DNA of 44,017 nucleotides from positions 1 to 44,017 of the forward strand of contig JADFHF010000030.1 in assembly GCA_022567305.1 (NCBI GenBank), read 5' to 3'. Positions 24,622-37,062 of this stretch are shown in pieces (position 1 is the stretch's first letter; each line of letters starts with the position of its first letter). This DNA is from Bacteroidota bacterium (lineage in GTDB: Bacteria > Bacteroidota > Rhodothermia > Rhodothermales > UBA10348). Under the pieces are notes generated by a model. It searched no databases and was not told the DNA's origin. It saw only the letters and a program-made list of their open reading frames with translations. The translations under genes and the position numbers were made by a program.

Positions 24622-25869
24622 TTAATTCCCGATCCACTCCACGGCGGTCGAAACGCCTTGCCCCACACCAACGCATAGAGTTACGAGACCATAATAAGGG
24701 ACAGTTTCAGTCGGTGATCGTCGATTCATTTCGTGCAATAGCGTCGTAAGAATTCTCGCGCCCGAACAACCCAGCGGATGACCAAGAGCCACGGCCCCGC
24801 CATTGACATTGGTGGTTTCAGAATCCAACTCGAGTTCTCGCATCACACCGATTGCCTGGGCTGCGAATGCTTCGTTCACTTCGACAAGACCGAACTGACG
24901 AATGTCCAGGCCGAGTCGTGCCATGAGCCTTTTGGTTGCCGGAACCGGACCAAAACCCATGACCTTTGGATCTACACCTGCTGTAGAACTACCTATCCAT
25001 CTTGCCATTGGACGAAGTCCGAGTTGCTTCGCCTTCTCGGCCGTCATCAATAGCACCGCCGCCGCACCATCATTCAGCCCGCTGGAATTTCCGGCCGTTA
25101 CGGTCCCATTCTCGCGAAACGCGGGACGCAGCGTAGAAAGTCTCTCAAGGTCCGTATCAAGAATGACTTTGCCGTTTGCGTGACGGAATCTGGGATGTTC
25201 ATCCGTCTCGATGAGCCTATTGCCCATTTTTTTCTCAGAAATCTGGACCGGAACAATTTCGTCCTCAAACCTACCTTCCGCAATCGCAGACACGGCTCGG
25301 CGGTGACTTTCCAGGGCAAATGCATCCTGCTCCGTGCGTGTAATTCCCATCCTTTCAGCAATGATTTCGGCCGTCTCACCGAGCTGCACAGTGACTTTCA
25401 TCGCCTCCAGCTTCGAATTGATCATCCGCCAACCCAATGTTGAGTCGAACATCTCCGGATGGCCGACAGCAAATGCTTGTTCAGATTTTGGGAGGATCCA
25501 CGGCGCCCGGCTCATGCTTTCAACGCCGCTTCCAATGAAGACATCTCCCTCGCCCACGAGAATAGCTTTCGCAGCCTGATTCACGGCTTCTAGTCCCGAG
25601 GCACACAACCGGTTTACCGTAACGCCGGAAACGCTATCAGGATATCCGGCCAGAAGTACGCCCATCCGGGCCACATTTCGATTGTCTTCACCGGCTTGGT
25701 TGGCACAACCTGCAAACACATCGTCGATGATTGCTGGATCAATCTCTGTTCGCTTGACGAGCTCCGAAAGCACAAGGGCTAGCAGGTCGTCTGGACGTAC
25801 GCTAGAAAGCACTCCGCCTAAACGACCAATGGGGGTTCGGACGGCATCAATGATGACAACTTCACGCAT
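24622..25869 (-). CDS. 3-oxoacyl-CoA thiolase (3-oxoadipyl-CoA thiolase / acetyl-CoA acyltransferase)
   Basis: 415 residues from ATG 25869, which has GAGGTG upstream at good spacing; a GTG two codons earlier (25875) is the alternative. Catalytic residues: nucleophile Cys89 in '[11 protein letters not shown]', 'NEAFAAQA', His in '[16 protein letters not shown]', and second Cys in 'LCVGVGQG'. The overall sequence resembles the PcaF group of degradative thiolases, which cleave 3-oxoadipyl-CoA to succinyl-CoA and acetyl-CoA. It is the last gene of the nine-gene minus-strand operon and follows the two CoA-transferase subunits with about 10 bp between, the same order as in catIJ-pcaF type clusters. 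The precise chain length is not certain. Confidence 0.93.
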
Positions 25870-25878
25870 GACCACACC

Positions 25879-26643
25879 TCAGATATAGAGATGATCGGGG
25901 TCCAGTTCTTCCCGAATGATTCGGAGTTCATCTGCCGTAGGCTCCGGGGTTTCAGTGACATCCCCGGCCATCTGTAGATTCCAGCCGATGGTGCTAACTA
26001 CATCGCTTCGCTCGACTCCCGGATGGATCTCAGTCAGGAAGATTTCTCCCGACTCGGAATCAAATTTGAACACACCCAGGTTCGTAATGAGCAGTGTTGG
26101 CCCTCCTCCCGGAAGACCCCAATCCTTTCTCGTTTTACCATTTGCTTTTTGGCCCGGACTCGTAATGAAATCCACGGTTTCGGGAAACGTCTTCAGATTT
26201 TGCGTCGCGATGATAACGACTCTTTTGGCGTGAATCGCCATTTCGCAGGCTCCGCCACTACCGGGAAGTCGCACTTTGGGATTTTTGTAATTACCGATTA
26301 CCGTCGTATTGATATTCCCGTATCGATCCATCTGCGCCGCGCCCAGGAATCCGACGTCGATCTTTTCATTCACCAGGTAATACTGGAAGACATCAAAGAT
26401 CGAACAGACCGCGGCGGCACCCTTTACCAGACACGGATCACCAATCGAAAGCGGAAGTCGATCGGGTACCGATCCGACCGCTCCGGATTCATAGATTAGC
26501 GTTAGATTTGGAGCATGGGTGTGACGAGCCAGATTGCACGCTAGATTGGGAAGCCCGATACCGACAAAAACGACTTCACCATCCAGAAGCTCGCGTGCCG
26601 CTCGGACAACCATCAATTCCGATGTTGAATACGAGGCTGCCAT
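25879..26643 (-). CDS. 3-oxoacid CoA-transferase, subunit B (CatJ/PcaJ-GctB type)
   Basis: 254 residues from ATG 26643; a TTG one codon earlier also exists, directly after the subunit A stop. The active-site glutamate is Glu52 in 'LTLIYESGAVGS', the residue that forms the glutamyl-CoA thioester in this family. Other marks: 'GIGLPNLACNLA', 'FLGAAQMDRYGNINTT', 'LPGSGGACEMA' and the 'IGWNLQMAGDVTETPEPTADELRII' tail, as in the Pseudomonas B13-type 3-oxoadipate CoA-transferase beta chain. It moves CoA from succinyl-CoA to a 3-oxoacid together with subunit A. The gap to its neighbours is essentially nil. Confidence 0.92.
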   Translation of the reverse strand: MAASYSTSELMVVRAARELLDGEVVFVGIGLPNLACNLARHTHAPNLTLIYESGAVGSVPDRLPLSIGDPCLVKGAAAVCSIFDVFQYYLVNEKIDVGFLGAAQMDRYGNINTTVIGNYKNPKVRLPGSGGACEMAIHAKRVVIIATQNLKTFPETVDFITSPGQKANGKTRKDWGLPGGGPTLLITNLGVFKFDSESGEIFLTEIHPGVERSDVVSTIGWNLQMAGDVTETPEPTADELRIIREELDPDHLYI

Positions 26644-26646
26644 CAA

Positions 26647-27558
26647 TCAATATCCATAATTCACAGGCGTCGACAGAACGAGCTCGGCCTTCAGACGGCT
26701 CACCTCATCGGGACCTAACTTTTCGACGTAGTCCGTACGGGATCCTACCCCATATATCCATTCATCCAGATATCGATCAAGAGACGATGGGTCTCTCGAA
26801 ATATCTCCCCAGGCGACATAAAAATCGTTGTCCCGGTCGTAATAACCCTGAACATAGGAAGGATGACAACCGAAAGGTTCCACTACGACCGCATCGACCA
26901 CCATGCCGGGTATCAAGGTTCTATTAGGATCGGATCGAATCACGGTTGAATCCACCAACTCCTCTACCACGACAATAACGTTCTTTGCAGCGAACGCGGT
27001 TTCCTTTTGGATTCCCGTAATACCCCAAACCTGTGCATTGCCGTCTGCGTCAGCTCGCTGAGCGTGAACGATAGCGATGTCAGGATTCAGCGCCGGAACG
27101 GTTGCGATCGACCGTTCCGTATACGGACAGGTCACCGATCGAATTTGGGGATTTACGGTCGGAAGATCGCTTCCGAGATAACTTTGAACGGGATAAAAAG
27201 GTAGGTTTGCGGCTCCTGCTATCAGTCGGGCCGCAAGCCCGAAATGTGAGTATTCCTCGATTTCGAGCGGACTTGGGATCTGCCCCTCAATCGCCCGTCT
27301 GAGGCCAAATAGTGAACCGGCGCCAGGATTTCCGGCCCAACTGAAAATGAGCTTTGACGCACAACCGGCGGCGATCATCTGATCGTAAATCAGGTCCGGA
27401 GTCATTCGGCAGAGTGTAAGATTCCGCTTTCTCTGACGGATGATTTCATGCGCCGCAGCAAAGCAGATGAGGTGAGTGAATCCATCGATTACAATCGTGA
27501 AGCCATCTTCCACAAAGCGAGAAATCGCATCTGCCATGGTCGTGACTTTGCTCTCCAT
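26647..27558 (-). CDS. 3-oxoacid CoA-transferase, subunit A (CatI/PcaI-GctA type)
   Basis: 303 residues from ATG 27558 with GAGGAA at ideal spacing. Family features: 'FVEDGFTIVIDGFTHLICFAAAHEIIRQ', 'LTLCRMTPDLIYDQMIAAGCASKLIFSWAGNPG', 'LEIEEYSHFGLAARL', 'CPYTERSIATVPALNPDIAIVHAQRADADGNAQ'. This is the GctA-like branch that includes the 3-oxoadipate CoA-transferase alpha chain of Pseudomonas B13, rather than the SCOT/AtoD branch. The alternative is glutaconate or another dicarboxylate as acceptor. No ring-cleavage genes (protocatechuate or catechol pathway) lie in the window, so the 3-oxoacid probably arises from the aminotransferase and dehydrogenase genes just upstream. Confidence 0.92.
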   Translation of the reverse strand: MESKVTTMADAISRFVEDGFTIVIDGFTHLICFAAAHEIIRQRKRNLTLCRMTPDLIYDQMIAAGCASKLIFSWAGNPGAGSLFGLRRAIEGQIPSPLEIEEYSHFGLAARLIAGAANLPFYPVQSYLGSDLPTVNPQIRSVTCPYTERSIATVPALNPDIAIVHAQRADADGNAQVWGITGIQKETAFAAKNVIVVVEELVDSTVIRSDPNRTLIPGMVVDAVVVEPFGCHPSYVQGYYDRDNDFYVAWGDISRDPSSLDRYLDEWIYGVGSRTDYVEKLGPDEVSRLKAELVLSTPVNYGY

Positions 27559-27567
27559 TCGCGTTCC

Positions 27568-28872
27568 TCAGGACAGAGATAGCTCGGACAACACGTTCGC
27601 CACTATTTCGAGTGCCTTATCTGCATCGGCTCTTTCGAGAATCATCGGTGGAGCAAATCGTACAGAATTCTCTCCGCAGGTCAGTACGAGAAGTCCCTTT
27701 CCGAAGCAAGAATATTCAAACGAGGCAGCCATCTCTCCAGATGTAAACTCGATCGCAAGCATCAGTCCTTTTCCTCGAACATCAGAAATGAACGGATGTC
27801 TGGATTGCAACTCGGATAGTCCCTCCATGAGGTAGCCGCCGATTTCTATCGCATTGGTCATGAGCCCCTCTTCCACGAGGTTGATCGTCTCCAAAGCAGC
27901 CGCGCAGGCAACCGGATTGCCGCCGAACGTACTTCCATGACTACCCGGAGGCCAGGACATGATCTCATCCCGGGCAATAACGGCACTGATGGGAAGTCCT
28001 GATCCGAGTCCTTTGGCGAGCGTGATAATGTCCGGCACGACGTCCCAATGCTCCATGGCAAAAAACTTTCCGGTTCGACCCATCCCACTCTGGATTTCGT
28101 CGGCAATGAGCAGAATGCCAAACTCGTCACATAGCTTTCTCAGCTGCGGGAAGTATTTTGGAGGCGGGATGATATGCCCTCCTTCTCCCTGAATGGGTTC
28201 GACCACCACGGCCGCAACTTCATCCGGAGAAATCGTTCTCTGGAAAATGGTATCCCTCCAACCATCGACACAGTGCACGTTGCATTCAGGGTACGTCAGA
28301 TGGTACGCACAGGACCTGCAATTCCCGTACGGCATGTGCGTGACTCCGGGTAGCAGCGGACCAAAACCTGCACGCTGCTTGATTTTGCTGGCTGTCAGAC
28401 TGAGGGCTCCGTACGTTCGGCCATGGAATCCCCCATAAAATGAAATAATCTGTTGACGCCCTGTATAATACCGAGCCAGCTTTATGGCGCCTTCAACGGC
28501 CTCTGCGCCGGAATTTCCCAAGTACACCCGCCAGGAGTCGGGCCCGGGCGCGAGGTCCGCGAGCTTCTGACATAGCTCAGTATAGACCGAGTAATAGAAG
28601 TCGGTCCCACAGATGTGTAGCAGTCGATCCACCTGGTCCTTGATTCGACTCACGACTCGGGGATGACAATGTCCGGTCAAAGAAACAGCGATTCCGGACA
28701 TGAAATCAATAAATCGATTGCCATCCACATCCGTAACCACGATGCCCTGTGCATGATCAACGGCGAGCGGATACTCTTTAATGAGTGATCGTGAGGCCAC
28801 GAGCGAGTCGCGTTCAATCAGGGCCCGCGCTTTCGGTCCCGGCAATTCCGTTTTTATCTCGGGATAGTTCAG
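27568..28872 (-). CDS. Class III omega-aminotransferase (acetylornithine/4-aminobutyrate-like) with Cys loop
   Basis: PLP enzyme of the subgroup that includes Pyrococcus PH1423-like omega-aminotransferases/racemases. Numbered from a TTG at 28845, the PLP lysine is Lys278 in 'ITLAKGLGSGLP', with Asp249 in 'LLIADEIQSGMGRTGK'. A loop carries Cys176, Cys179, Cys188 and Cys192 (CxxC-x8-CxxxC), suggesting a bound metal. The start is placed at CTG 28872: the residues gained (LNYPEIKTEL before PGPKARA) match the family leader as I recall it, GGAGG lies 7 bp upstream, and CTG overlaps the stop of the preceding dehydrogenase (CTGA). With standard starts only, TTG 28845 would be used. It probably transaminates the terminal amino group of an omega- or beta-amino acid. 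Confidence 0.9.
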   Translation of the reverse strand: MNYPEIKTELPGPKARALIERDSLVASRSLIKEYPLAVDHAQGIVVTDVDGNRFIDFMSGIAVSLTGHCHPRVVSRIKDQVDRLLHICGTDFYYSVYTELCQKLADLAPGPDSWRVYLGNSGAEAVEGAIKLARYYTGRQQIISFYGGFHGRTYGALSLTASKIKQRAGFGPLLPGVTHMPYGNCRSCAYHLTYPECNVHCVDGWRDTIFQRTISPDEVAAVVVEPIQGEGGHIIPPPKYFPQLRKLCDEFGILLIADEIQSGMGRTGKFFAMEHWDVVPDIITLAKGLGSGLPISAVIARDEIMSWPPGSHGSTFGGNPVACAAALETINLVEEGLMTNAIEIGGYLMEGLSELQSRHPFISDVRGKGLMLAIEFTSGEMAASFEYSCFGKGLLVLTCGENSVRFAPPMILERADADKALEIVANVLSELSLS

Positions 28873-30452
28873 ATCGAAGCCTCCACAACCGTTCGGCTTT
28901 GCTCACGCATGAATTGCTGAACGTAATACGGACCACAACCCCCTTTTCCTGTCGATCCACTTCCCTTCCATCCGCAAAACGCTTGAACACCCGGCCACGC
29001 GCCTGTAGTCGCTCCCGACCTACGATTGGCGTAGCACACGCCTGATTCAATATGGTTGAAGAACCACTCCACCTCGTCGGGATCGCTGCTATAAACACCT
29101 GCGGTCAACCCATACTCTGAACGATTGGACAGGTCCACGGCTTCCTCCAGGGTTTCGACGACCCCCACGGTAACGAAGGGCACAAACAGTTCTTTGTAAA
29201 AGAGTTCGTGGTCCGTGGGTAATCCCGTAACGATCGTCGGCTCAACGAAATATCCTCGATCAAAGGGCGGATCACTAAGAGTATTTCCTCCGCTTAAAAT
29301 CGTACCGTCCCGCCTCGCAACCTCTACGGCCCCCTGATAGGTCTGATAAGCGCTCTCGTTGACCAGGGGTCCCAGGAAGACTCCCCGCTCACTGGGATCA
29401 CCGATCACAACCGCCCTAGTCTTTTCAACGAGACGGTCTAAAAATTCGACCTCAAGGGATGGATGAACGTACACCCGGGAGCAGGCGCTACATTTCTGGC
29501 CGCTAAGCCCGACGACCGATCTCATGACTCCCTCCGCCGCTAGTTCGGCGTCGGCGTTTACGGTAACGATTGCGGGGTTTTTTCCTCCCATTTCGGTCAC
29601 ACACGGCTTCGGATATTCAGGGGAGAACCGGTGATACGCACTCATTCCTACCTCTTTGGAACCCGTAAACACGATGCCGTCAACATCCGGGTTAGTAACC
29701 AATTCTTCCCCAACGACAGAGCCTGGGCCATTGACGTAATTAAAAACTCCGGCAGGAAGTCCGGCTTCCCTGAACACATCGTACAGCAGTAAGCCGGTCC
29801 ACGGAGCATCCGAGGACGGTTTGTAAACGACCGTGTTTCCTGCAACGAGCGCTCCGGCTGACATACCGGCTGAAAGAGCCAGGGGAAAATTAAAGGGGGC
29901 GATGACGGCCCATACTCCGAATGGCCGAAGCACGCTCACCACGTGCTCATCAGGAGAGAGCTGACCCATCCGCTTGAAAAAGCCGTTGGCATCCTCCATC
30001 TGCTGGCAGTAATAACGAATGAGGTCTGCAGCCTCTTCGGTATCACCCATCGCTTCGAGGCGACTTTTGCCGACTTCCAGACACATAACGGCCGCAAAAA
30101 AATACTTCCGTTCGCTGATCAGATCCGCGGCCGCACGAAGAATTCGAACACGCTCGTGCCAGTCCTCCGACCAGGTGCGATAGGCACTCTTCGCCGCTTG
30201 AATGGCGTCACGTGTATCGTCAGCCGTACCGTTTGCAAAGTACCCGAGGATCAGGTTTCTATCCGTCGGAGAAATATCGTCATTATAGGAATTCGCTTCT
30301 CGCGCTTCGTCAGCAATAAAATTAGGATACGTTGCTCCCGCTTTTTGCCTGGCTTCCTCTACACCCGCATCAAAGTCACCGTGAAAGGCGTCGGAATCTC
30401 CCTGTCCCATCGTCGAATAAGTGAATTTGAAGTCCGTCTGTTCCGCTTGCAT
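28869..30452 (-). CDS. Aldehyde dehydrogenase, glutamate-semialdehyde dehydrogenase (P5CDH/RocA)-like
   Basis: 527 residues. NAD(P)+-dependent ALDH fold with catalytic Cys in 'LSGQKCSACSRVYV', Glu in 'VTEMGGKNPAIV', Asn in 'APFNFPLALS' and 'VFTGSKEVG' in the cofactor site. The C-terminal 'TGAWPGVQAFCGWKGSGSTGKGGCGPYYVQQFMREQSRT' region, in pieces, is the hallmark of RocA/PruA-type L-glutamate gamma-semialdehyde dehydrogenases, which also accept related amino-semialdehydes. In this operon it would oxidise the aldehyde formed by one of the two aminotransferases to a carboxylic acid. The N-terminal 40 residues are unusually acidic. Neighbours: aminotransferase 82 bp upstream, aminotransferase overlapping or close downstream. 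Confidence 0.93.
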   Translation of the reverse strand: MQAEQTDFKFTYSTMGQGDSDAFHGDFDAGVEEARQKAGATYPNFIADEAREANSYNDDISPTDRNLILGYFANGTADDTRDAIQAAKSAYRTWSEDWHERVRILRAAADLISERKYFFAAVMCLEVGKSRLEAMGDTEEAADLIRYYCQQMEDANGFFKRMGQLSPDEHVVSVLRPFGVWAVIAPFNFPLALSAGMSAGALVAGNTVVYKPSSDAPWTGLLLYDVFREAGLPAGVFNYVNGPGSVVGEELVTNPDVDGIVFTGSKEVGMSAYHRFSPEYPKPCVTEMGGKNPAIVTVNADAELAAEGVMRSVVGLSGQKCSACSRVYVHPSLEVEFLDRLVEKTRAVVIGDPSERGVFLGPLVNESAYQTYQGAVEVARRDGTILSGGNTLSDPPFDRGYFVEPTIVTGLPTDHELFYKELFVPFVTVGVVETLEEAVDLSNRSEYGLTAGVYSSDPDEVEWFFNHIESGVCYANRRSGATTGAWPGVQAFCGWKGSGSTGKGGCGPYYVQQFMREQSRTVVEASI

Positions 30453-30534
30453 ATCGACCTGACCATAGATCGTGGAATGGTGAAAAAGAAGCTATACGTT
30501 TCCGGCGTCTTTTGCATAACACCTTGAACGCCCA

Positions 30535-31875
30535 TCATAGGTTTTCCTCAATCGTTTCGATCGCAGACTTGAGCCGCTTTACCAATTCGTCCACCTGATC
30601 TTTCGTGATAACGAATGGGGGTCCAAGGACTGAAAGATCCCCATTATTTGAAGGAAGATATCTAGTTGTGGACCATAGGATCAACCGTTCTTCAAACGCT
30701 GCTTTTCGAATCCGTTCCGCGATTTTAAATTCCGGTGGAAACGGCTCTTTTGTGTCTCGATTTTCCACATACTCCACACCTGCAAGTAGACCAATTCCCC
30801 GTACGTCGCCAACTATTTCGCTCGACCTCAACGTTTGAAGCTGCTCGAGAAAGTACACTCCCATTTGCGCAGATCTTGCTACAAGTTCATGATCTTTTAG
30901 ATATTGAATCGTAGATAAGCCAGCGGCAGCGGCCACGGGTGTGTGTGAAAAAGTCTGATTAAAACTGAAAGCTCCACTCTTTTGGGCAATGGTATCGACA
31001 ATCTCATCGCGCACGACCAGCGCACTGAGGGGTGCGTAGCCCCCGCTCAGCCCTTTTCCCAGAGTCAGGATATCGGGCGCTACATCTTCTCGGTCGACCG
31101 CCAGCCATTTCCCCGTTCTCCCCATGCCCGTCAACACTTCGTCCACAATGAAAAGAACATCGTGTCGATCGCAGATCTCACGAATCTTGGCGAAGTAACC
31201 GGGTGGTGATACAACGCCCCCTGCGGATGCGCCGATTACCGGTTCGGCAATGAAGGCCGCAACCAATTCCGGACCCTCCTTCTCGATAGTCGCTTCAAGA
31301 TGAGAAGCGCACTGATCCCCGAATTCTTCGAACGAAAGATCTGTCGGACAACGATACTCCATCGGTGCCGGTACGAAAGAGAAATCCTGCAGAAGGGGTT
31401 CGAATATTTCCCTCGACGAAGGCCGGCCGGAAACGGAGAGGGCAGCCAACGTATTGCCGTGATAACCCGGGGTCCGCGCGATAATTCTATACTTCTGGTC
31501 ACGACCTTTTTCACACCAGTATTGCCTCGCCAGTTTAATAGCTGCTTCGGTTGCTGCCGATCCACTGCTCAGGAAATAAACATGATTCAGCCCCTCCGGA
31601 GTGAATGCGGCAACTTCTCTCGCCAACGCTTCAACGGGCTCATTCGTAAAGTGGAGCCCGTTCACGTACGCGAGTTTATGCGCCTGATTGGCCATCGAGT
31701 TCGCGATCTCGGCGACACCGTGTCCAACGTTAACCACTAATGCGCCACCGGAACCATCGATAAACTCGTTCCCATCCTGATCATAGAGGTAGATCCCCTC
31801 CCCCCGGACGGCCGTCGACATTTCCTCCGTTAAACGTCGATAAAACACGTTGGATGTGGGATACCTGGGGGACAT
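30535..31875 (-). CDS. Class III aminotransferase (aspartate aminotransferase family / beta-transaminase-like)
   Basis: 446 residues. PLP lysine is Lys274 in 'LTLGKGLSGGYAPLSALVV', Asp245 in 'LFIVDEVLTGMGRTGKW', and the phosphate-binding turn is 'LSSGSAATEAAIKLARQYW' (residues about 102-120). It starts with 'YPTSNVFYRRL...RGEGIYLYDQDG', as in the broad set annotated 'aspartate aminotransferase family'; that set includes enzymes acting on beta- and omega-amino acids with pyruvate as acceptor. The ATG overlaps the stop of the symporter by one base, a tight coupling of uptake and deamination. The substrate cannot be fixed from sequence. Confidence 0.92.
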   Translation of the reverse strand: MSPRYPTSNVFYRRLTEEMSTAVRGEGIYLYDQDGNEFIDGSGGALVVNVGHGVAEIANSMANQAHKLAYVNGLHFTNEPVEALAREVAAFTPEGLNHVYFLSSGSAATEAAIKLARQYWCEKGRDQKYRIIARTPGYHGNTLAALSVSGRPSSREIFEPLLQDFSFVPAPMEYRCPTDLSFEEFGDQCASHLEATIEKEGPELVAAFIAEPVIGASAGGVVSPPGYFAKIREICDRHDVLFIVDEVLTGMGRTGKWLAVDREDVAPDILTLGKGLSGGYAPLSALVVRDEIVDTIAQKSGAFSFNQTFSHTPVAAAAGLSTIQYLKDHELVARSAQMGVYFLEQLQTLRSSEIVGDVRGIGLLAGVEYVENRDTKEPFPPEFKIAERIRKAAFEERLILWSTTRYLPSNNGDLSVLGPPFVITKDQVDELVKRLKSAIETIEENL

Positions 31876-33344
31876 CAGTCAGTGGCCTCCGTTCCGAAAG
31901 GACTTAAGTTTCCAAAACGGCCCGCCAGTGCGAGTTCGACACCTTCTGCATTTCGAAGAGGCCGGGGCTCATTTGAGCGCTGAGTGGCGAGGCTTACGAC
32001 GACGAGGGCAATGATCCCCATGGCCAGCCCAAAGAGGTCCGACGGTATAGCAATCGTAAAGAACGGAACGACAATCCAGCAGACGAGACCCACGATCATA
32101 GAAGCTAAAGCGCCAGGAATATTGGCCTTTTTCCACCAGATAGCGGCCGTCAAAGGCACAAAAAGCGAAACCAGGGCTATCGAAAATGCATTGACCAGGA
32201 GGTTATATATGTTTTGGAAATACAGCGCCACCATGAGTGCAAGGATCGTCACGACGGGTACGCTCCACCGAGACCACTTCAGAATATTCGCGTCTGTCGC
32301 ATCCGGCTTGGCAAAAGGAATCAAGTTCTTTCCGATAACGCTCGAGGTTGCCAGAATAGCGCTGTCCGCGCTGCTCATCACGGCTGCAAGAAGTGCGCTG
32401 ACGAAGATGACGACAACGGTCGTCGGCAGATACTCCATTACGAGCATGGGCACAATCAATTCAGCATTTTCGATATCCGGCATCAAAATGGTCCCAATCA
32501 GTCCCATACAAATCGGGATTAAGCCGAACGTCAGATAAACGCCACTTGAAATGTACAATCCGGTTTGAGCCGTCTTCTCATCCTTGGCCGCCAGACAACG
32601 CTGCATCAAGTCCTGTCCCGCAATATTTCCAAGCCCAATCACGATCCAGGCTCGTATGTAGAACAACCAATTCGAAAATCCTCCCTCTTCCGGAGTCATC
32701 GAAAAGCTGCCTTCGGGAAGGCGCGAAAGAATGGCTTCCAGACCACCGGCTTCCTTGATCAGAACCGGAAACGCAATCAACAGGCCCACTACAACCAGAA
32801 TGATTTGCAGGAAGTCCGTCCAGGCAACAGCCCACATCCCCCCGATCATGGTGTAGATGAGTGTGATCGCTGTGCCGATTCCGATCGCCCACTCCGTAGA
32901 AATACCTGTGATCGTTTGAAGAACGAATCCGAACGATACGAGAAGGGCACCTGTCCATCCTACGTAAATGATGATCGTTGCAACGGCGGCAAGGAACCCG
33001 GTTCTCTTGTCATACCGAGAATTAAACACGTCGACCACCGTCATCACGGACATTCGTCGAAGCATCCGAGCGAAGAAGAGGCCCGCCAACAGAAGACAGA
33101 GAGCCGCTCCAAACGGATCCGCAATAACCCCGATAAAACCCTTTTCATAGGCTACGCCAGCGGCCCCTAGAACCGTTCCCCCGCCGAACCATGTCGCAGA
33201 CAGCGTTCCAACAGTCAACCAAAGTGGAAGGCTACGCCCCGCGACAAGAAAGTCAGCCGCATTCGTGACTCGCCGACTCGCGATGTAACCAATGCCCAAC
33301 ATGGCCAGCAAGTAGACCGCGATGCCTATGTAGACCTCAGCCAT
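31875..33344 (-). CDS. Sodium:solute symporter family (SSS) transporter
   Basis: 489 residues, about 13 membrane helices as expected for SSS/LeuT-fold carriers. Family features: 'AADFLVAGRSLPLWLTVGTLSATWFGGGTVLG' near the N-terminus, 'IYTMIGGMWAVAWTDFLQIILVVVG', 'GQDLMQRCLAAKDEKTA' and the Na2-site-like 'ALLAAVMSSADSAILATSS'. The start overlaps the P1 peptidase stop by 8 bp. These carriers import amino acids, peptoid-like compounds, sugars or carboxylates with Na+. Placed between peptidase and aminotransferase, the obvious cargo is the amino acid or small peptide that the operon degrades. Confidence 0.93.
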   Translation of the reverse strand: MAEVYIGIAVYLLAMLGIGYIASRRVTNAADFLVAGRSLPLWLTVGTLSATWFGGGTVLGAAGVAYEKGFIGVIADPFGAALCLLLAGLFFARMLRRMSVMTVVDVFNSRYDKRTGFLAAVATIIIYVGWTGALLVSFGFVLQTITGISTEWAIGIGTAITLIYTMIGGMWAVAWTDFLQIILVVVGLLIAFPVLIKEAGGLEAILSRLPEGSFSMTPEEGGFSNWLFYIRAWIVIGLGNIAGQDLMQRCLAAKDEKTAQTGLYISSGVYLTFGLIPICMGLIGTILMPDIENAELIVPMLVMEYLPTTVVVIFVSALLAAVMSSADSAILATSSVIGKNLIPFAKPDATDANILKWSRWSVPVVTILALMVALYFQNIYNLLVNAFSIALVSLFVPLTAAIWWKKANIPGALASMIVGLVCWIVVPFFTIAIPSDLFGLAMGIIALVVVSLATQRSNEPRPLRNAEGVELALAGRFGNLSPFGTEATD

Positions 33345-34386
33345 TCGCCACCCGTATCAATTTCCCGATCATTTCATCGGACATGGAATGGGCTGTTCTT
33401 CCCCCCGAACCGGTGAGCGTCGTGGCCGCGGAGAGCGCACTGAGAACAGCCTCTGTGGTGGCCTCGCGAGCGCCCTGGCGGAGTTCAGCGTGTGAGACAT
33501 TGGGAGCGAATTCCAGATCGTAGATCCCGGCACGGTTCGGTTCTCGAACGGCAATACCCGTCGAGAATGATACAATTTGGTAGGAGCCGGCAGGCTTCCT
33601 AACGGAGCCGATATCAGCGGCGCCGTATGCGGCGCCAGCGGCCAGGGTGTCGAGTACTGGAGACGGAAGCGCGGCATTTGTCGCGACCACTCCGAGTAAC
33701 GACGGATACAGATTCTCGGGGGGATTCGCTTCAGATTCGTCCAGGAATTCGGCGTATGAACCATAGTTTGCCAGGACCAGCGAACCGACGGTATACGTTT
33801 TTCCTCCCCTTTCTATTACTCGCGACGACGTGCCGATACCCCCTTTAAACCCGAAGGAAACAGCGCCGACACCCGCGCCTACGTTCCCCTCCTCAGCGTT
33901 ATCAGATGAGGCACCGTTGAGTGCTTTCAGCGCGTGGTCTTCGGTCAGTCGGCGAGCTGTCATGTCGTTAAGGACTCGATCGTCGAATCCCATTACGATG
34001 GGCGGCCAGCCGCCACTTGTCGAAAGCCCGCTACTCCTTATGAATCCGTACGTGATGGCGCCATTATATATTCTTCCCACACTAAGTAGATTCGCCATGA
34101 ACACCGGAGAGGCGAGAAGCCCAAAATCGTCCATCACCGAATAGCCCGTCATCTCACCACCGGAACCATCGGTGTATTTTCCATAGAAATAGAGTGCGTT
34201 TTCGTCGGTTACCGCATGTGGGGATACGACTGTGATGCCCGTCTGAATCTCCCCCTCCGAAATCGATTCGTGCCCAACATGAACTCCGCTCACATCCGTA
34301 ATGGAATTGTTCTCGCCGCTCGGAAGCGTTCCGATCACGATGCCGCGCTCGCGAGCCCTCCCAATATGATTTGCCTGGGTGCTCAT
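33337..34386 (-). CDS. P1 family peptidase (DmpA/BapA, aminopeptidase or beta-aminopeptidase), cytosolic
   Basis: 349 residues, no signal peptide. Typical P1 course: 'NSITDVSGVHVGHESI', 'TGITVV', 'GEMTGYSVMDDFGLLASPVFMANLLSVG', 'GNVGAGVGAVSFGFKGGIGTSSRV', then 'YPSLLGVVATNAAL', where Ser229 should be the nucleophile freed by self-cleavage of the proenzyme. The 'GxGT.....KGGIGTSSR' stretch is shared with the second P1 gene. The family removes N-terminal residues from peptides and includes the only known beta-aminopeptidases (BapA). The stop lies inside the start of the symporter. Which residues it prefers is unknown. Confidence 0.93.
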   Translation of the reverse strand: MSTQANHIGRARERGIVIGTLPSGENNSITDVSGVHVGHESISEGEIQTGITVVSPHAVTDENALYFYGKYTDGSGGEMTGYSVMDDFGLLASPVFMANLLSVGRIYNGAITYGFIRSSGLSTSGGWPPIVMGFDDRVLNDMTARRLTEDHALKALNGASSDNAEEGNVGAGVGAVSFGFKGGIGTSSRVIERGGKTYTVGSLVLANYGSYAEFLDESEANPPENLYPSLLGVVATNAALPSPVLDTLAAGAAYGAADIGSVRKPAGSYQIVSFSTGIAVREPNRAGIYDLEFAPNVSHAELRQGAREATTEAVLSALSAATTLTGSGGRTAHSMSDEMIGKLIRVANG

Positions 34387-34393
34387 ACTCCGG

Positions 34394-35593
34394 CTACAGT
34401 CGATTATACTTCTTCATGATCTCAGTGAGTCGGTCGAGTGGCAAGGCATGCCGGATCGAGCCATTCGCGCCATCCATGGTAGGCGCCGCCGTCAGCGCAT
34501 TGAGGATCGCTTCTTCCGTCGCTTCCGAAGCTGCTTCCCAGAGGCTGCTGACTCCGTTATCACCGGTCCATGACACATTTTCATCCGAGCTGCGAGGAAC
34601 AGTCGAAAAGGCGATAAAGACATCACCACTTCCATGCGTCGAGACGGATCCAGTCTTTGCGAGGCCCATTGCGAGACGCTTGCACAACCGATTCAACTGA
34701 ATGGGAAGAAGAGGAGCATCTGTCGCTGCAACGATAATAATCGATTTGGATTTCTCTACCTCGTCTTCCGGATATCGAAGGAGCTCCTCGCCTACGGGTA
34801 CGCCATCAACGCGGAGAAGATGTCGCGATCCGTGGTTGGCATTAACAAGAACCCCCACGGTGTATCCGCCTCGATTCGCAGGTATCCTGCGAGAGGACGT
34901 ACCGATCCCAGATTTAAATCCGTAGGAACGCATTCCCGTACCCCCACCGACTGCGCCCTCTTCCACTGGCCCGTCTGCCGCGCTTGCAATCGCTCTTAAA
35001 ACGTCATCCTCCGAGAGATGTCTTCCCTGAATGTCACCGAGGCTATCCCAACATTCGCCAACAACGGGCACGGGGACTCGCTCCGTGACGCCTATTTCAG
35101 GATGTTCCTGAAGCAAATAGGTAAGTGCAGCATCATAAACGATCCCCACATTCGCCGTCCCGGTTAGAAAGATGGGCGTTTCGAGAAGCCCGCCGTTCAG
35201 CGTGTTGAGCAGGCCCGTCAGCTCTCCGTTGCCATTGAGTATGAAGCCTCCGACTGGCAGCTTCTCTCGATATACATTTCCTGAACGGGGAAGAATGGCC
35301 GTCACTCCAGTTCGGATCGGACCTTCTCCTACGATCAGTCGACCGGAGCCAGAAATATTGGTGGTGTGACCAACCCGAACACCTTCGACGTCGGTGATTG
35401 CATTATGCAGACCGGTCGGTAAACGACCGATGGTGATTCCGAGATCTCTGAGGCGAGTGCGGTTACCCGGATTCGTATTTCTTCGAGAACTGGCTTTCGA
35501 TATCTGAACTCCCAGAGCTGACCAGAGCCCAGACAACGCGCTTCCAAATGTCATCTGGACGAATCCGCGCCTGGAAAAGTGGAATTTCGACAT
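34394..35593 (-). CDS. P1 family peptidase (DmpA/BapA), Tat-exported
   Basis: 399 residues from ATG 35593, preceded by a purine-rich GAGGCGAGG; an earlier frame start at 35632 is not needed. A twin-arginine signal is visible, 'SRRGFVQMTFGSALSGLWSALG', residues about 7-28, so the enzyme is folded before export to the periplasm. Core motifs: 'NAITDVEGVRVGHTTN', 'GFILNGNGELTGL', 'GAVGGGTGMRSYGFKSGIGTSSRR', 'VLVNANHGSRHLL', and 'SKSIIIVAATDAPLLP', where the predicted nucleophile is Ser284. This is the first gene of the long minus-strand operon, 7 bp before the cytosolic paralogue, suggesting cleavage on both sides of the inner membrane. Confidence 0.93.
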   Translation of the reverse strand: MSKFHFSRRGFVQMTFGSALSGLWSALGVQISKASSRRNTNPGNRTRLRDLGITIGRLPTGLHNAITDVEGVRVGHTTNISGSGRLIVGEGPIRTGVTAILPRSGNVYREKLPVGGFILNGNGELTGLLNTLNGGLLETPIFLTGTANVGIVYDAALTYLLQEHPEIGVTERVPVPVVGECWDSLGDIQGRHLSEDDVLRAIASAADGPVEEGAVGGGTGMRSYGFKSGIGTSSRRIPANRGGYTVGVLVNANHGSRHLLRVDGVPVGEELLRYPEDEVEKSKSIIIVAATDAPLLPIQLNRLCKRLAMGLAKTGSVSTHGSGDVFIAFSTVPRSSDENVSWTGDNGVSSLWEAASEATEEAILNALTAAPTMDGANGSIRHALPLDRLTEIMKKYNRL

Positions 35594-35915
35594 GGTCGAG
35601 CCTCGCCTCACCCTAAATTGCTTGGCAACCATGCCAAGGTCCGGACCAATCTAGGACATAAGGATGAAGAAAATGTGGTCGCAATCGTGGTCGTGACGTT
35701 ACGAGATCGTTGAGAATAAAGCTTGGCAGTTGCTTGATCGATGAACCGCTTCAAATCGACAGATTACCTTGTCCGTAGACCGGATCCCCCAAGACCCTAC
35801 TCATAACCTAGTGTCTTGACGGGGTTTGCCACGGCAGCCTTAACCGATTGCGACTCGATTGAAAATCTGTTAGACTTCGATCACTCATTCAGCTCGCACG
35901 ACCAGCACCTCACGA
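35594..35915. promoter_or_regulatory. 322-bp divergent intergenic region, promoter of the P1/aminotransferase/thiolase operon
   Basis: No open frame of merit. It separates the operon's first gene (minus) from the ltrA pseudogene (plus) and must contain the operon promoter. I cannot point to a strong palindrome or a regulator gene next to it; the operon therefore seems to be controlled from elsewhere. Confidence 0.5.
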
Positions 35916-37062
35916 ATGCCAAACTCAAGCATCGTTTCTCCGGAAGATCAGACGGTAACATTCGTCGAACTTTTCTTTGATCTGGTATTCGTCTTCTCGG
36001 TTACACAGGTTGTTTCGTTCTTCCATCATGGAGTTTCCTGGAGTACAGCAGGCAGTGCAGTCCTCGTTTTCTGGTTGGTGTGGTGGGCCTGGACTCAGTT
36101 TACGTGGGCCCTGAATGCTGCAAATACGGATCATCAGCATATCCAGATTGCTATGCTCTTGGCGACGGCCATCGCATTTTTTATGGCCATCGCTGTTCCA
36201 GACGCCTTCGGTAATAAAGCGCTGTGGTTCGCGATCCCATATGTGATGGTTCGTCTGGTCGGGCTCCACGTCTATACAAAGGTCACGGTAACCAACGAAA
36301 AACAACACGAAGGGTGTTCGCTTGTTTGCTTTGGCTTCAATTGGTGGACTCATCGCGGTCGTGATGGGCGCCGTCATGGGCGGCCCGACTCAATACTGGC
36401 TCTGGGGACTCGCTATTCTTTTAGATGCGCTCGCTGCACAGGTAGCGGGAAAATCTGATAGCTGGAATCTGCATCCAGAACATTTTGTCGAGAGACACGG
36501 ACTCATCGTGATCATCGCCCTCGGAGAATCCTTGATTGTCGCCGCTGCGGGTCTAGTAGGTTCCGATCTCACCCTCACTCTTCTGACGGTCGGGCTCTTG
36601 GCAGTGATGATCACGTGCGCACTCTGGTGGAGCTACTTTCCCTACGTAAAACCACTTTTGGAGAGCGGGCTGATCCGGACTGAGGCATCGGACGAAGGCC
36701 CGATGGCGAGAGACGCGTTTAGTTTTGGCCATTTCCCGCTTCTCTGCGGGATTATTGCCATCTCATCAGCCATAGAAGTGGCGGTATTGGATCCGACTGC
36801 ACCCCTGCCACTCGAGGTGCGAGTTGCGATGGCGAGCGGCCTTTTTCTTTTTACGGTTGCCGCTGCGTACGCTCAGTGGCGAACCGTAGGTATTCTGCCG
36901 AGAATGCGCCTCTTCGTTATTGTCGTCACGGGAGCGGCCATTGTTCTAGTAGCCGGCACGCTCCCGTGGGTAACACTCCTGATTGCATTCGTAGGGGTGA
37001 CTGGGGTGGTGATCGTCGAATACGTAAAATGTAGACCGATGGTCGAGCACATGATCGGTTAG
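35916..37062 (+). pseudogene. ltrA: Low-temperature-requirement protein A (LtrA)-like membrane protein, frameshifted
   Basis: Two overlapping frames together make one LtrA-like protein of about 380 residues. The first (35916 onward) has 'TFVELFFDLVFVFSVTQVV', 'WLVWWAWTQFTWALNAANTDHQ', 'LLATAIAFFMAIAVPDAFG'. After 'YTKVTVTNE' it runs into nonsense and would stop at 36458. The second (open to 37062) continues with 'LFALASIGGLIAVVMGAVMGG', 'HFVERHGLIVIIALGESLIVAAAGL' and the remaining membrane helices. The join falls at 36298-36302, a run of five A; removing one A restores one reading frame. This could be a true frameshift or a homopolymer error. A -1 slip would give the wrong frame. The family is membrane-bound, with unknown biochemical role. 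Confidence 0.82.

What the first reader, a model, noticed from the sequence alone, without database searches (positions are those of the whole stretch)
24622..35593. Nine-gene operon that reads as a complete beta-peptide / beta-amino acid catabolic pathway
Seen: a near-gapless minus-strand run of P1 peptidase (Tat), P1 peptidase (cytosolic), SSS symporter, class III aminotransferase, semialdehyde dehydrogenase, class III aminotransferase, CoA-transferase A and B, thiolase. Known: P1/DmpA peptidases include the beta-aminopeptidases; class III aminotransferases include beta- and omega-transaminases; a beta-amino acid loses its amino group to give a 3-oxoacid, which is exactly the substrate class of CatIJ/PcaIJ CoA-transferase and of thiolase. 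Inferred: peptide cleavage, uptake, deamination, activation and thiolysis are encoded in order. I am not aware of a described operon that joins beta-aminopeptidases to 3-oxoacid cleavage.
Basis: partly seen in the sequence, partly recalled or inferred. Interest (0 to 1): 0.82.

Follow-up and report, generated by a model that had tools for sequence, protein, structure and literature searches.

The report
Predicted beta-lysine breakdown operon
A nine-gene bacterial operon looks like a so far undescribed route for eating beta-lysine, turning it through 3-oxoadipate into two central metabolites, with peptide-cutting and uptake genes attached at the front in this one genome.

Summary
The nine genes are there, co-directional and nearly gapless. 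The interpretation changes. What is conserved is a core: aminotransferase AT1, a P5C-dehydrogenase-like ALDH, aminotransferase AT2 and a CoA-transferase pair, found in unrelated phyla. The peptidases and symporter are in 0 of 29 related loci. Two findings point to the substrate. In some relatives a lysine 2,3-aminomutase-like gene closes the operon or adjoins AT2. The CoA-transferase/thiolase genes have the order and about 50% identity of the 3-oxoadipate cassette of protocatechuate clusters. Prediction: beta-lysine -> 3-aminoadipate semialdehyde (cyclising to a P5C homologue) -> 3-aminoadipate -> 3-oxoadipate -> succinyl-CoA + acetyl-CoA. This genome has no KamA-family gene; an exported beta-aminopeptidase-like enzyme and a symporter would feed the path from outside. 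The second 'peptidase' lacks key active-site residues. No description of the route was found in the open papers searched. All functions are predictions; nothing was assayed.

The parts
34394..35632 (-). P1a: S58/P1 (DmpA/BapA-type) peptidase with a Tat-like signal, proposed to release beta-lysine from outside amides
   Evidence: Pfam PF03576, 351 bits; best PDB sequence hits 2drh and the beta-peptidyl aminopeptidase 3n2w; nucleophile Ser, amino-group Glu and S-G-D motif present by alignment (roles recalled); SRRGFVQ read directly
33337..34386 (-). P1b: divergent S58-family protein, no Tat-like start; probably not a normal beta-aminopeptidase
   Evidence: Pfam 215 bits; Gly at the BapA E133 position and G-S-Y in the columns of S-G-D/E; its own nucleophile Ser is kept, but the G103 relative has Ala there
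31875..33344 (-). SSS family Na+/solute symporter, proposed importer
   Evidence: PF00474 180 bits; TIGR00813 over cut-off, no specific equivalog reached
30535..31875 (-). AT1: class III aminotransferase, proposed 3-aminoadipate (beta) transaminase
   Evidence: just upstream of ALDH on the same strand in 14 of 29 loci and in 22 of 30 loci of a second set
28869..30452 (-). ALDH: P5C-dehydrogenase-like aldehyde dehydrogenase, proposed 3-aminoadipate semialdehyde dehydrogenase
   Evidence: best NCBIfam and PDB hits are P5C dehydrogenases, below the NCBIfam cut-offs
27568..28845 (-). AT2: class III aminotransferase, proposed beta-lysine 6-aminotransferase
   Evidence: PRK05769 over cut-off; best PDB hit 7vno; next to a KamA-like gene on the same strand in 4 of 5 KamA-clade genomes of one phylum sample
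26647..27558 (-). CoA-transferase subunit A (CatI/GctA type)
   Evidence: best PDB hit glutaconate CoA-transferase 1poi_A; 48.8-54.9% to subunit A of the five clusters (identities)
25879..26646 (-). CoA-transferase subunit B (CatJ/GctB type), YESG motif present
   Evidence: best PDB hit 1poi_B; 52% to the P. veronii beta subunit beside pcaF
24622..25875 (-). PcaF-like 3-oxoadipyl-CoA thiolase
   Evidence: PRK09050 511 bits and pcaF TIGR02430 504 bits are the top hits, both below cut-off; 50% to annotated P. veronii PcaF

Best explanation
The six-gene core (24622-31875, minus strand) is a catabolic pathway for beta-lysine (3,6-diaminohexanoate). AT2 removes the 6-amino group, giving 3-amino-6-oxohexanoate, which should cyclise to a one-carbon-longer homologue of P5C. 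The P5C-dehydrogenase-like ALDH oxidises it to 3-aminoadipate. AT1 removes the 3-amino group to give 3-oxoadipate. The CatIJ-type CoA-transferase and the PcaF-like thiolase turn that into succinyl-CoA and acetyl-CoA. In some relatives the beta-lysine would be made from lysine by a KamA-type 2,3-aminomutase. This genome has no such gene; its operon instead begins with a Tat-type beta-aminopeptidase-like enzyme, a peptidase-like partner and a symporter, which would release and import beta-lysine from outside sources. Shown by sequence: gene content, conservation of the core, KamA linkage in some relatives, the cassette order, KamA absence here. Inferred: all substrates, the order of the two deaminations, and the peptidase source.
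For: (1) Core conserved: AT1 just upstream of ALDH in 14 of 29 loci, AT2 just downstream in 15, ctA downstream in 21, ctB in 18, all same strand; AT1-ALDH-AT2-ctA on one strand in 10 of 29 (my count). (2) A KamA-like gene starts 8 nt after the ctB stop in L016 and lies next to AT2 on the same strand in 4 of 5 KamA-clade genomes of one phylum sample. All 5 KamA-clade genomes are among the 31 of 249 with the ALDH; hypergeometric P 2e-5, kinship not corrected. (3) Equivalents of LAM R134, D293 and D330, the FeS cysteines and a lysine at the PLP position are invariant in 14 aligned KamA-like proteins (roles, and the lysine's mapping, recalled). (4) A differently built Rhizobium plasmid cluster has KamA 2.5 kb from this ALDH subfamily, on the opposite strand, with an aminotransferase nearby. 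(5) A-B-thiolase order in 5 of 7 ctA regions opened (not 61, 81). (6) The ALDH's nearest relatives are P5C dehydrogenases, as a P5C-homologue substrate predicts. (7) No KamA in this genome nor in G006 and G103.
Against: No enzyme was assayed. KamA-like proteins score far below the lysine 2,3-aminomutase cut-off (182 and 175 vs 525 bits); thiolase, ALDH and CoA-transferase are below their equivalog or pca cut-offs. KamA of this clade lies within the fetched flanks in only 2 of 29 loci. 26 of the 31 ALDH-positive genomes of the phylum sample lack the clade; six of the 31 have a distant ALDH (46-50%), and the five of those with loci show no linked aminotransferase. Four operon genomes without the clade (G470, G471, G474, G475) have other KamA-family genes of unsettled kind. 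Nine Anaerolineae-type loci keep ALDH-ctA without either aminotransferase and three loci keep ALDH alone. Of six annotated plasmid regions around the ALDH subfamily only one lists KamA (the gene tables are incomplete). The peptidase link rests on this genome and one with P1a-P1b-AT2-symporter only.
Confidence: 0.6

Rival explanations
1. Beta-lysine is degraded by the GABA-type route: the 3-amino group leaves first, 6-amino-3-oxohexanoate is activated and thiolysed to 4-aminobutyryl-CoA and acetyl-CoA, and GABA then goes through the second aminotransferase and the ALDH to succinate.
For: Uses the same number of enzymes; AT2 also matches GABA transaminase models, below their cut-offs; a related acetylated route in a Pseudomonas is recalled from the 1981 literature.
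Against: ALDH is P5C-dehydrogenase-like rather than succinate-semialdehyde-dehydrogenase-like; the CoA-transferase/thiolase match the dicarboxylate 3-oxoadipate cassette; AT1 pairs with ALDH and AT2 with KamA, though AT2 also adjoins ALDH; no acetyltransferase or deacylase among the nine genes.
Confidence: 0.13
2. One reading: a general beta-peptide/beta-amino acid pathway (beta-alanyl and similar peptides cut by two peptidases, deaminated to 3-oxoacids, cleaved by the thiolase).
For: P1a is close to BapA/DmpA in sequence with active-site residues kept; the operon is continuous.
Against: Leaves the ALDH and one aminotransferase without a role; the cassette is of the 3-oxoadipate type; P1b lacks key residues; peptidases are not part of the conserved unit; some relatives link the core to a KamA-like enzyme instead.
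Confidence: 0.1
3. Nylon-type 6-aminohexanoate pathway: S58 hydrolase (as NylC), omega-aminotransferase, semialdehyde dehydrogenase, CoA activation of adipate, beta-oxidation ending at 3-oxoadipyl-CoA thiolase.
For: NylC is an S58-family hydrolase (recalled); caprolactam is degraded by an omega-aminotransferase and 6-oxohexanoate dehydrogenase to adipate (PMC6061476, passages read); AT1 matches solved omega-aminotransferases.
Against: No acyl-CoA dehydrogenase, hydratase or 3-hydroxyacyl-CoA dehydrogenase among the nine genes; two aminotransferases where one suffices; the only PDB sequence hits of P1a and P1b at E 0.001 are five DmpA/BapA/D-aminopeptidase-type chains; the KamA linkage has no role.
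Confidence: 0.05
4. The KamA-like enzyme makes a shorter beta-diamino acid (for example beta-ornithine) and the path runs through beta-glutamate and 3-oxoglutarate.
For: Same chemistry one carbon shorter; the KamA clade's specificity is untested.
Against: The tail matches the C6 3-oxoadipate cassette; thiolysis of 3-oxoglutaryl-CoA would be unusual (general knowledge).
Confidence: 0.06

Closest known systems
Clostridial lysine fermentation (KamA, KamDE, Kdd, Kce, Kal or Kat)
   Different: There beta-lysine goes on to 3,5-diaminohexanoate and 3-keto-5-aminohexanoate, giving acetoacetate and 3-aminobutyryl-CoA; none of those later enzymes is among the nine genes here
Aerobic beta-lysine degradation by acetylation in a Pseudomonas (recalled; not found)
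   Same: Transamination at C3, CoA activation and thiolysis (recalled)
   Different: Uses an acetylated intermediate and ends at 4-aminobutyrate (recalled); no acetyltransferase among the nine genes
Beta-ketoadipate pathway tail (CatIJ/PcaIJ and PcaF)
   Same: Same A-B-thiolase gene order, about 50% identity to annotated members
   Different: Joined to amino-acid-processing genes instead of protocatechuate or catechol genes
Ornithine aminotransferase plus P5C dehydrogenase
   Same: AT2's best PDB hit is 7vno (recalled to be an archaeal ornithine aminotransferase) and the ALDH's best are P5C dehydrogenases
   Different: Proposed substrate is one carbon longer with the amino group at C3; below the ornithine aminotransferase and P5C dehydrogenase cut-offs
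DmpA/BapA beta-aminopeptidases (P1/S58)
   Same: P1a keeps the family profile and active-site residues
   Different: Placed here in a catabolic operon; P1b is a divergent copy

Membership tests
P1/S58 beta-aminopeptidase (P1a) | S58 profile and close relation to BapA/DmpA | tested here: met
   PF03576 351 bits; 3n2w E 1.2e-70, 1b65 4.9e-67
P1/S58 beta-aminopeptidase (P1a) | Nucleophile Ser, Glu for the free amino group, S-G-D/E motif (roles recalled) | tested here: met
   KSKSIII, GECWD and GSGD in the alignment (BapA columns)
P1/S58 beta-aminopeptidase (P1b) | Same residues | tested here: not met
   Ser kept, but Gly at E133 and G-S-Y in the S-G-D/E columns; the relative in G103 has Ala at the nucleophile
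P1/S58 beta-aminopeptidase | Hydrolysis of beta-lysyl or other beta-aminoacyl amides | not testable with these tools
   needs purified enzyme
3-oxoadipate CoA-transferase and thiolase cassette | A-B-thiolase order as in annotated beta-ketoadipate clusters | tested here: met
   5 of 7 opened ctA regions (not 61, 81), out of 147 records with ctA hits
3-oxoadipate CoA-transferase and thiolase cassette | NCBIfam cut-offs | tested here: not met
   pcaF 504 vs 597; pcaJ family 52 vs 244; pcaI family 39 vs 129 bits
P5C dehydrogenase | NCBIfam cut-offs | tested here: not met
   402 vs 648 and 386 vs 660 bits: a related but separate subfamily
Lysine 2,3-aminomutase (linked gene in relatives) | TIGR03820 cut-off | tested here: not met
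   182 vs 525 bits for L016, 175 for L020
Lysine 2,3-aminomutase (linked gene in relatives) | FeS cysteines, PLP lysine, R134, D293, D330 | tested here: met
   invariant in 14 KamA-like proteins (mapping to 2a5h, which ends before the lysine; roles recalled)
Clostridial lysine fermentation | KamDE, Kdd, Kce present | tested here: not met
   none among the nine genes; the rest of the genome was not searched for them
Nylon/6-aminohexanoate pathway | NylC-type hydrolase and beta-oxidation genes in the operon | tested here: not met
   the genome elsewhere was not searched for them

The most novel reading that the evidence does not exclude
A so far undescribed aerobic lysine/beta-lysine pathway through 3-aminoadipate joins amino acid breakdown to the beta-ketoadipate tail across several phyla. 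It has interchangeable front ends: lysine 2,3-aminomutase in some bacteria, and in this one an exported beta-aminopeptidase plus Na+ symporter that scavenges beta-lysyl compounds, which would give P1 peptidases a physiological role.
Probability: 0.45. Interest if true: 0.8.

Novelty: new variant of a known kind. Interest (0 to 1): 0.62.

Why it matters
It would add a lysine-degradation route with specific, testable enzymes. A 2020 paper on making adipic acid from lysine states in its abstract that enzymes deaminating beta-lysine, lysine or 2-aminoadipate are not known (PMC7241714; abstract and passages read). That paper seeks ammonia lyases, but AT2, ALDH and AT1 would be natural enzymes that act on beta-lysine and lead to C6 dicarboxylates. 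It would also offer a natural setting for a P1 beta-aminopeptidase; the four papers listed by my search on their natural role do not, by title and abstract, settle it (listing only).

Tried and rejected
Considered and rejected or lowered: beta-alanine degradation (no role for CoA-transferase and thiolase); alpha-lysine through 2-aminoadipate (KamA linkage and 3-oxoadipate cassette do not fit); nylon/caprolactam route (see rivals); EF-P beta-lysylation as a source in this genome (no KamA-family gene; EF-P genes were not searched).

Led nowhere: promoter/terminator scan; an unclassified ~850-residue neighbour protein; the KamA neighbourhoods L075-L080 showed none of the nine window genes by tblastn apart from a thiolase piece in L077. 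Structure prediction, fold search, Rfam and RNA-model tools were not used. Paper searches gave no description of this route: 0 papers; 4; 2; 1; 11; 40 of 146 listed; 5; one search was too loose to be useful (10,980 papers, 15 listed, none with acetyl-beta-lysine). These are listings only, except PMC3149608, PMC6061476 and PMC7241714, where passages were read. The library lacks most subscription journals, so this is weak evidence of novelty. Many of the 29 loci are cut by contig ends. One of the 31 ALDH-positive genomes had no locus and was not in the adjacency count (30 examined). Of 11 plasmid records with the ALDH I opened 7, one of them unannotated.

Full report
What is there. Nine co-directional minus-strand genes lie at 24622-35632. 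Pfam assigns two S58 peptidases, an SSF symporter, two class III aminotransferases, an aldehyde dehydrogenase, two CoA-transferase subunits and a thiolase. Distances between neighbours run from -8 to 82 nt.

What is conserved. I aligned the ALDH with its ortholog in the same-family genome G006 and scanned the genome collection, which returned 29 loci. Their titles name Gemmatimonadales/Gemmatimonadaceae/Gemmatimonadetes, Elusimicrobia, Deltaproteobacteria, Acidobacteria, Anaerolineae and other Chloroflexi, Gammaproteobacteria, one Bacteroidetes (the G006 contig itself) and two simply 'bacterium'. By tblastn, AT1 lies just upstream of the ALDH on the same strand in 14 of 29, AT2 just downstream in 15 of 29, ctA downstream in 21 of 29 and ctB in 18 of 29. 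AT1-ALDH-AT2-ctA on one strand is seen in 10 of 29 (counted; Gemmatimonadota, Elusimicrobia, the G006 contig and the two untitled bacteria). A linked same-strand thiolase is seen in 2 of 29 (L011, L028), an opposite-strand one nearby in 3. The peptidases and the symporter give no hit at E 1e-8 in any of the 29. Many loci are cut by contig ends, so these are lower bounds. Nine Anaerolineae-type loci have ALDH and ctA without the aminotransferases, and L019 (Acidobacteria), L030 and L032 have the ALDH alone; these do not support the full pathway. Within the window's own group the core is rare: the ctA query matched 3 of 148 genomes, counting G000 itself (one, G127, is only 49% identical), and the ALDH at E 1e-130 matched 1 of 394 phylum genomes, the window's own.

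The substrate clue from relatives. In L016 (Elusimicrobia) a KamA-family radical SAM gene starts 8 nt after the ctB stop, completing AT1-ALDH-AT2-ctA-ctB-KamA; in L020 (Gemmatimonadetes) KamA is next to AT2. These are the only 2 of the 29 loci with this KamA in the flanks. In the whole genomes, a full-length relative at 62% or more is present in 6 of the 31 handles searched (the query's own included), and end-of-contig pieces at 62% in two more. Any KamA relative at E 1e-10 is present in 25 of 31, but KamA is common in bacteria (9 of 14 controls), so only the clade is informative (G006 and G464 are one genome). In a 249-genome sample of the L020 phylum this clade (E 1e-100) occurs in 5 genomes and the ALDH (E 1e-140) in 31; all 5 are among the 31 (hypergeometric 2e-5, or 2e-4 without the query genome; kinship not corrected). 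Six of the 31 have a distant ALDH at 46-50%; the five with loci have no linked aminotransferase. KamA and AT2 are neighbours on one strand in 4 of the 5 KamA-clade genomes; in three of these the pair is on another contig than the ALDH. The fifth, G465, has AT2 in the operon and KamA elsewhere. The KamA-like proteins score below the lysine 2,3-aminomutase cut-off but keep the residues that bind the iron-sulphur cluster, PLP, the carboxylate (R134) and the side-chain amino group (D293, D330) of Clostridium subterminale lysine 2,3-aminomutase (roles recalled). A Rhizobium plasmid that holds the best plasmid match to the ALDH carries a different KamA-family gene 2.5 kb away on the other strand, an aminotransferase and an FAD oxidoreductase. 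The five other annotated plasmid regions around this ALDH subfamily that I opened list no KamA; one more record was unannotated; four of the 11 were not opened.

The tail clue. The CoA-transferase is closest in the PDB to glutaconate CoA-transferase. Of 147 plasmid records with ctA matches I opened seven. In five the order is A-B-thiolase, the thiolase named pcaF in four, beside protocatechuate, catechol or 4-hydroxybenzoate genes (P. veronii; Azospirillum ramasamyi; A. oryzae; Pararhizobium qamdonense; Rubrobacter). Two haloarchaeal regions are not of this kind. The window thiolase and B subunit are 50% and 52% identical to the P. veronii proteins. So the tail most likely takes 3-oxoadipate. 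The NCBIfam cut-offs for these names are not reached.

How it would work. A compound that needs two transaminations and one aldehyde oxidation to become 3-oxoadipate is 3,6-diaminohexanoate, beta-lysine, the product of KamA acting on lysine. AT2, the KamA neighbour and a relative of ornithine/GABA aminotransferases, would remove the 6-amino group. The product can cyclise to a P5C homologue, and the ALDH is a P5C-dehydrogenase relative that keeps the C-terminal S-G-x3-K-x-G-(x)-G-P-x-Y stretch of those enzymes with one extra residue. AT1, the usual partner of the ALDH, would then deaminate C3. The opposite order of deaminations is not excluded.

This genome. It has no KamA-family gene at E 0.001, nor have G006 and G103 (assemblies incomplete, 78% and 89%). 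Its operon instead begins with P1a, P1b and the symporter; in G006 the contig ends inside AT1, so its front end is unknown. G103 of the same order has P1a-P1b-AT2-symporter, with AT2 68% identical and a distant symporter (27%), without the ALDH and without ctA. So the peptidases associate with AT2 as KamA does elsewhere, which suggests, on one genome, that both supply the same amino acid. P1a is a DmpA/BapA relative with intact active-site residues and a Tat-like start. P1b has Gly for the amino-binding Glu and G-S-Y for the S-G-D/E motif, and its G103 relative lacks the nucleophile, so P1b may be a partner or have another activity. P1a-like genes also occur in 13 of 17 handles checked, G000 included and G006 counted twice, so their mere presence proves nothing.

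Verdict. The core as beta-lysine catabolism through 3-oxoadipate: about 0.6. The peptidase feed: about 0.45. Nothing was assayed.

Noticed in passing
window 35916-37062: Two overlapping plus-strand ORFs (35916-36458 and 36322-37062) look like one membrane protein split by a frame change; sequencing error or real break not tested.
   Followed up: no
L012, L017, L020, L021, L022, L037, L039: A conserved roughly 850-residue protein with a YYFREMYLPQ-type motif near its start lies near the core in 7 of 29 loci; never classified.
   Followed up: partly
L120 (Rhizobium sp. CB3171 plasmid pCB3171_2): An alternative cluster with KamA, the ALDH subfamily, FAD oxidoreductase, an aminotransferase, a histone-deacetylase-family protein and a GNAT acetyltransferase: perhaps an amine-oxidase version of the route or one acting on acetylated beta-lysine.
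   Followed up: partly
L026, L027, L029, L031, L033-L036, L038: Anaerolineae-type loci keep ALDH-ctA (ctB too in 8 of 9) but no linked AT1 or AT2; how the amino groups are removed there is unknown.
   Followed up: no
L081 7735-8682: P1b relative with Ala at the position of the catalytic Ser, next to an intact P1a: a possible pseudo-peptidase partner.
   Followed up: partly
L012 8149-9564: An amino acid antiporter of the GadC kind (below cut-off) follows ctB in a relative, so importers attached to the core may differ between genomes.
   Followed up: no
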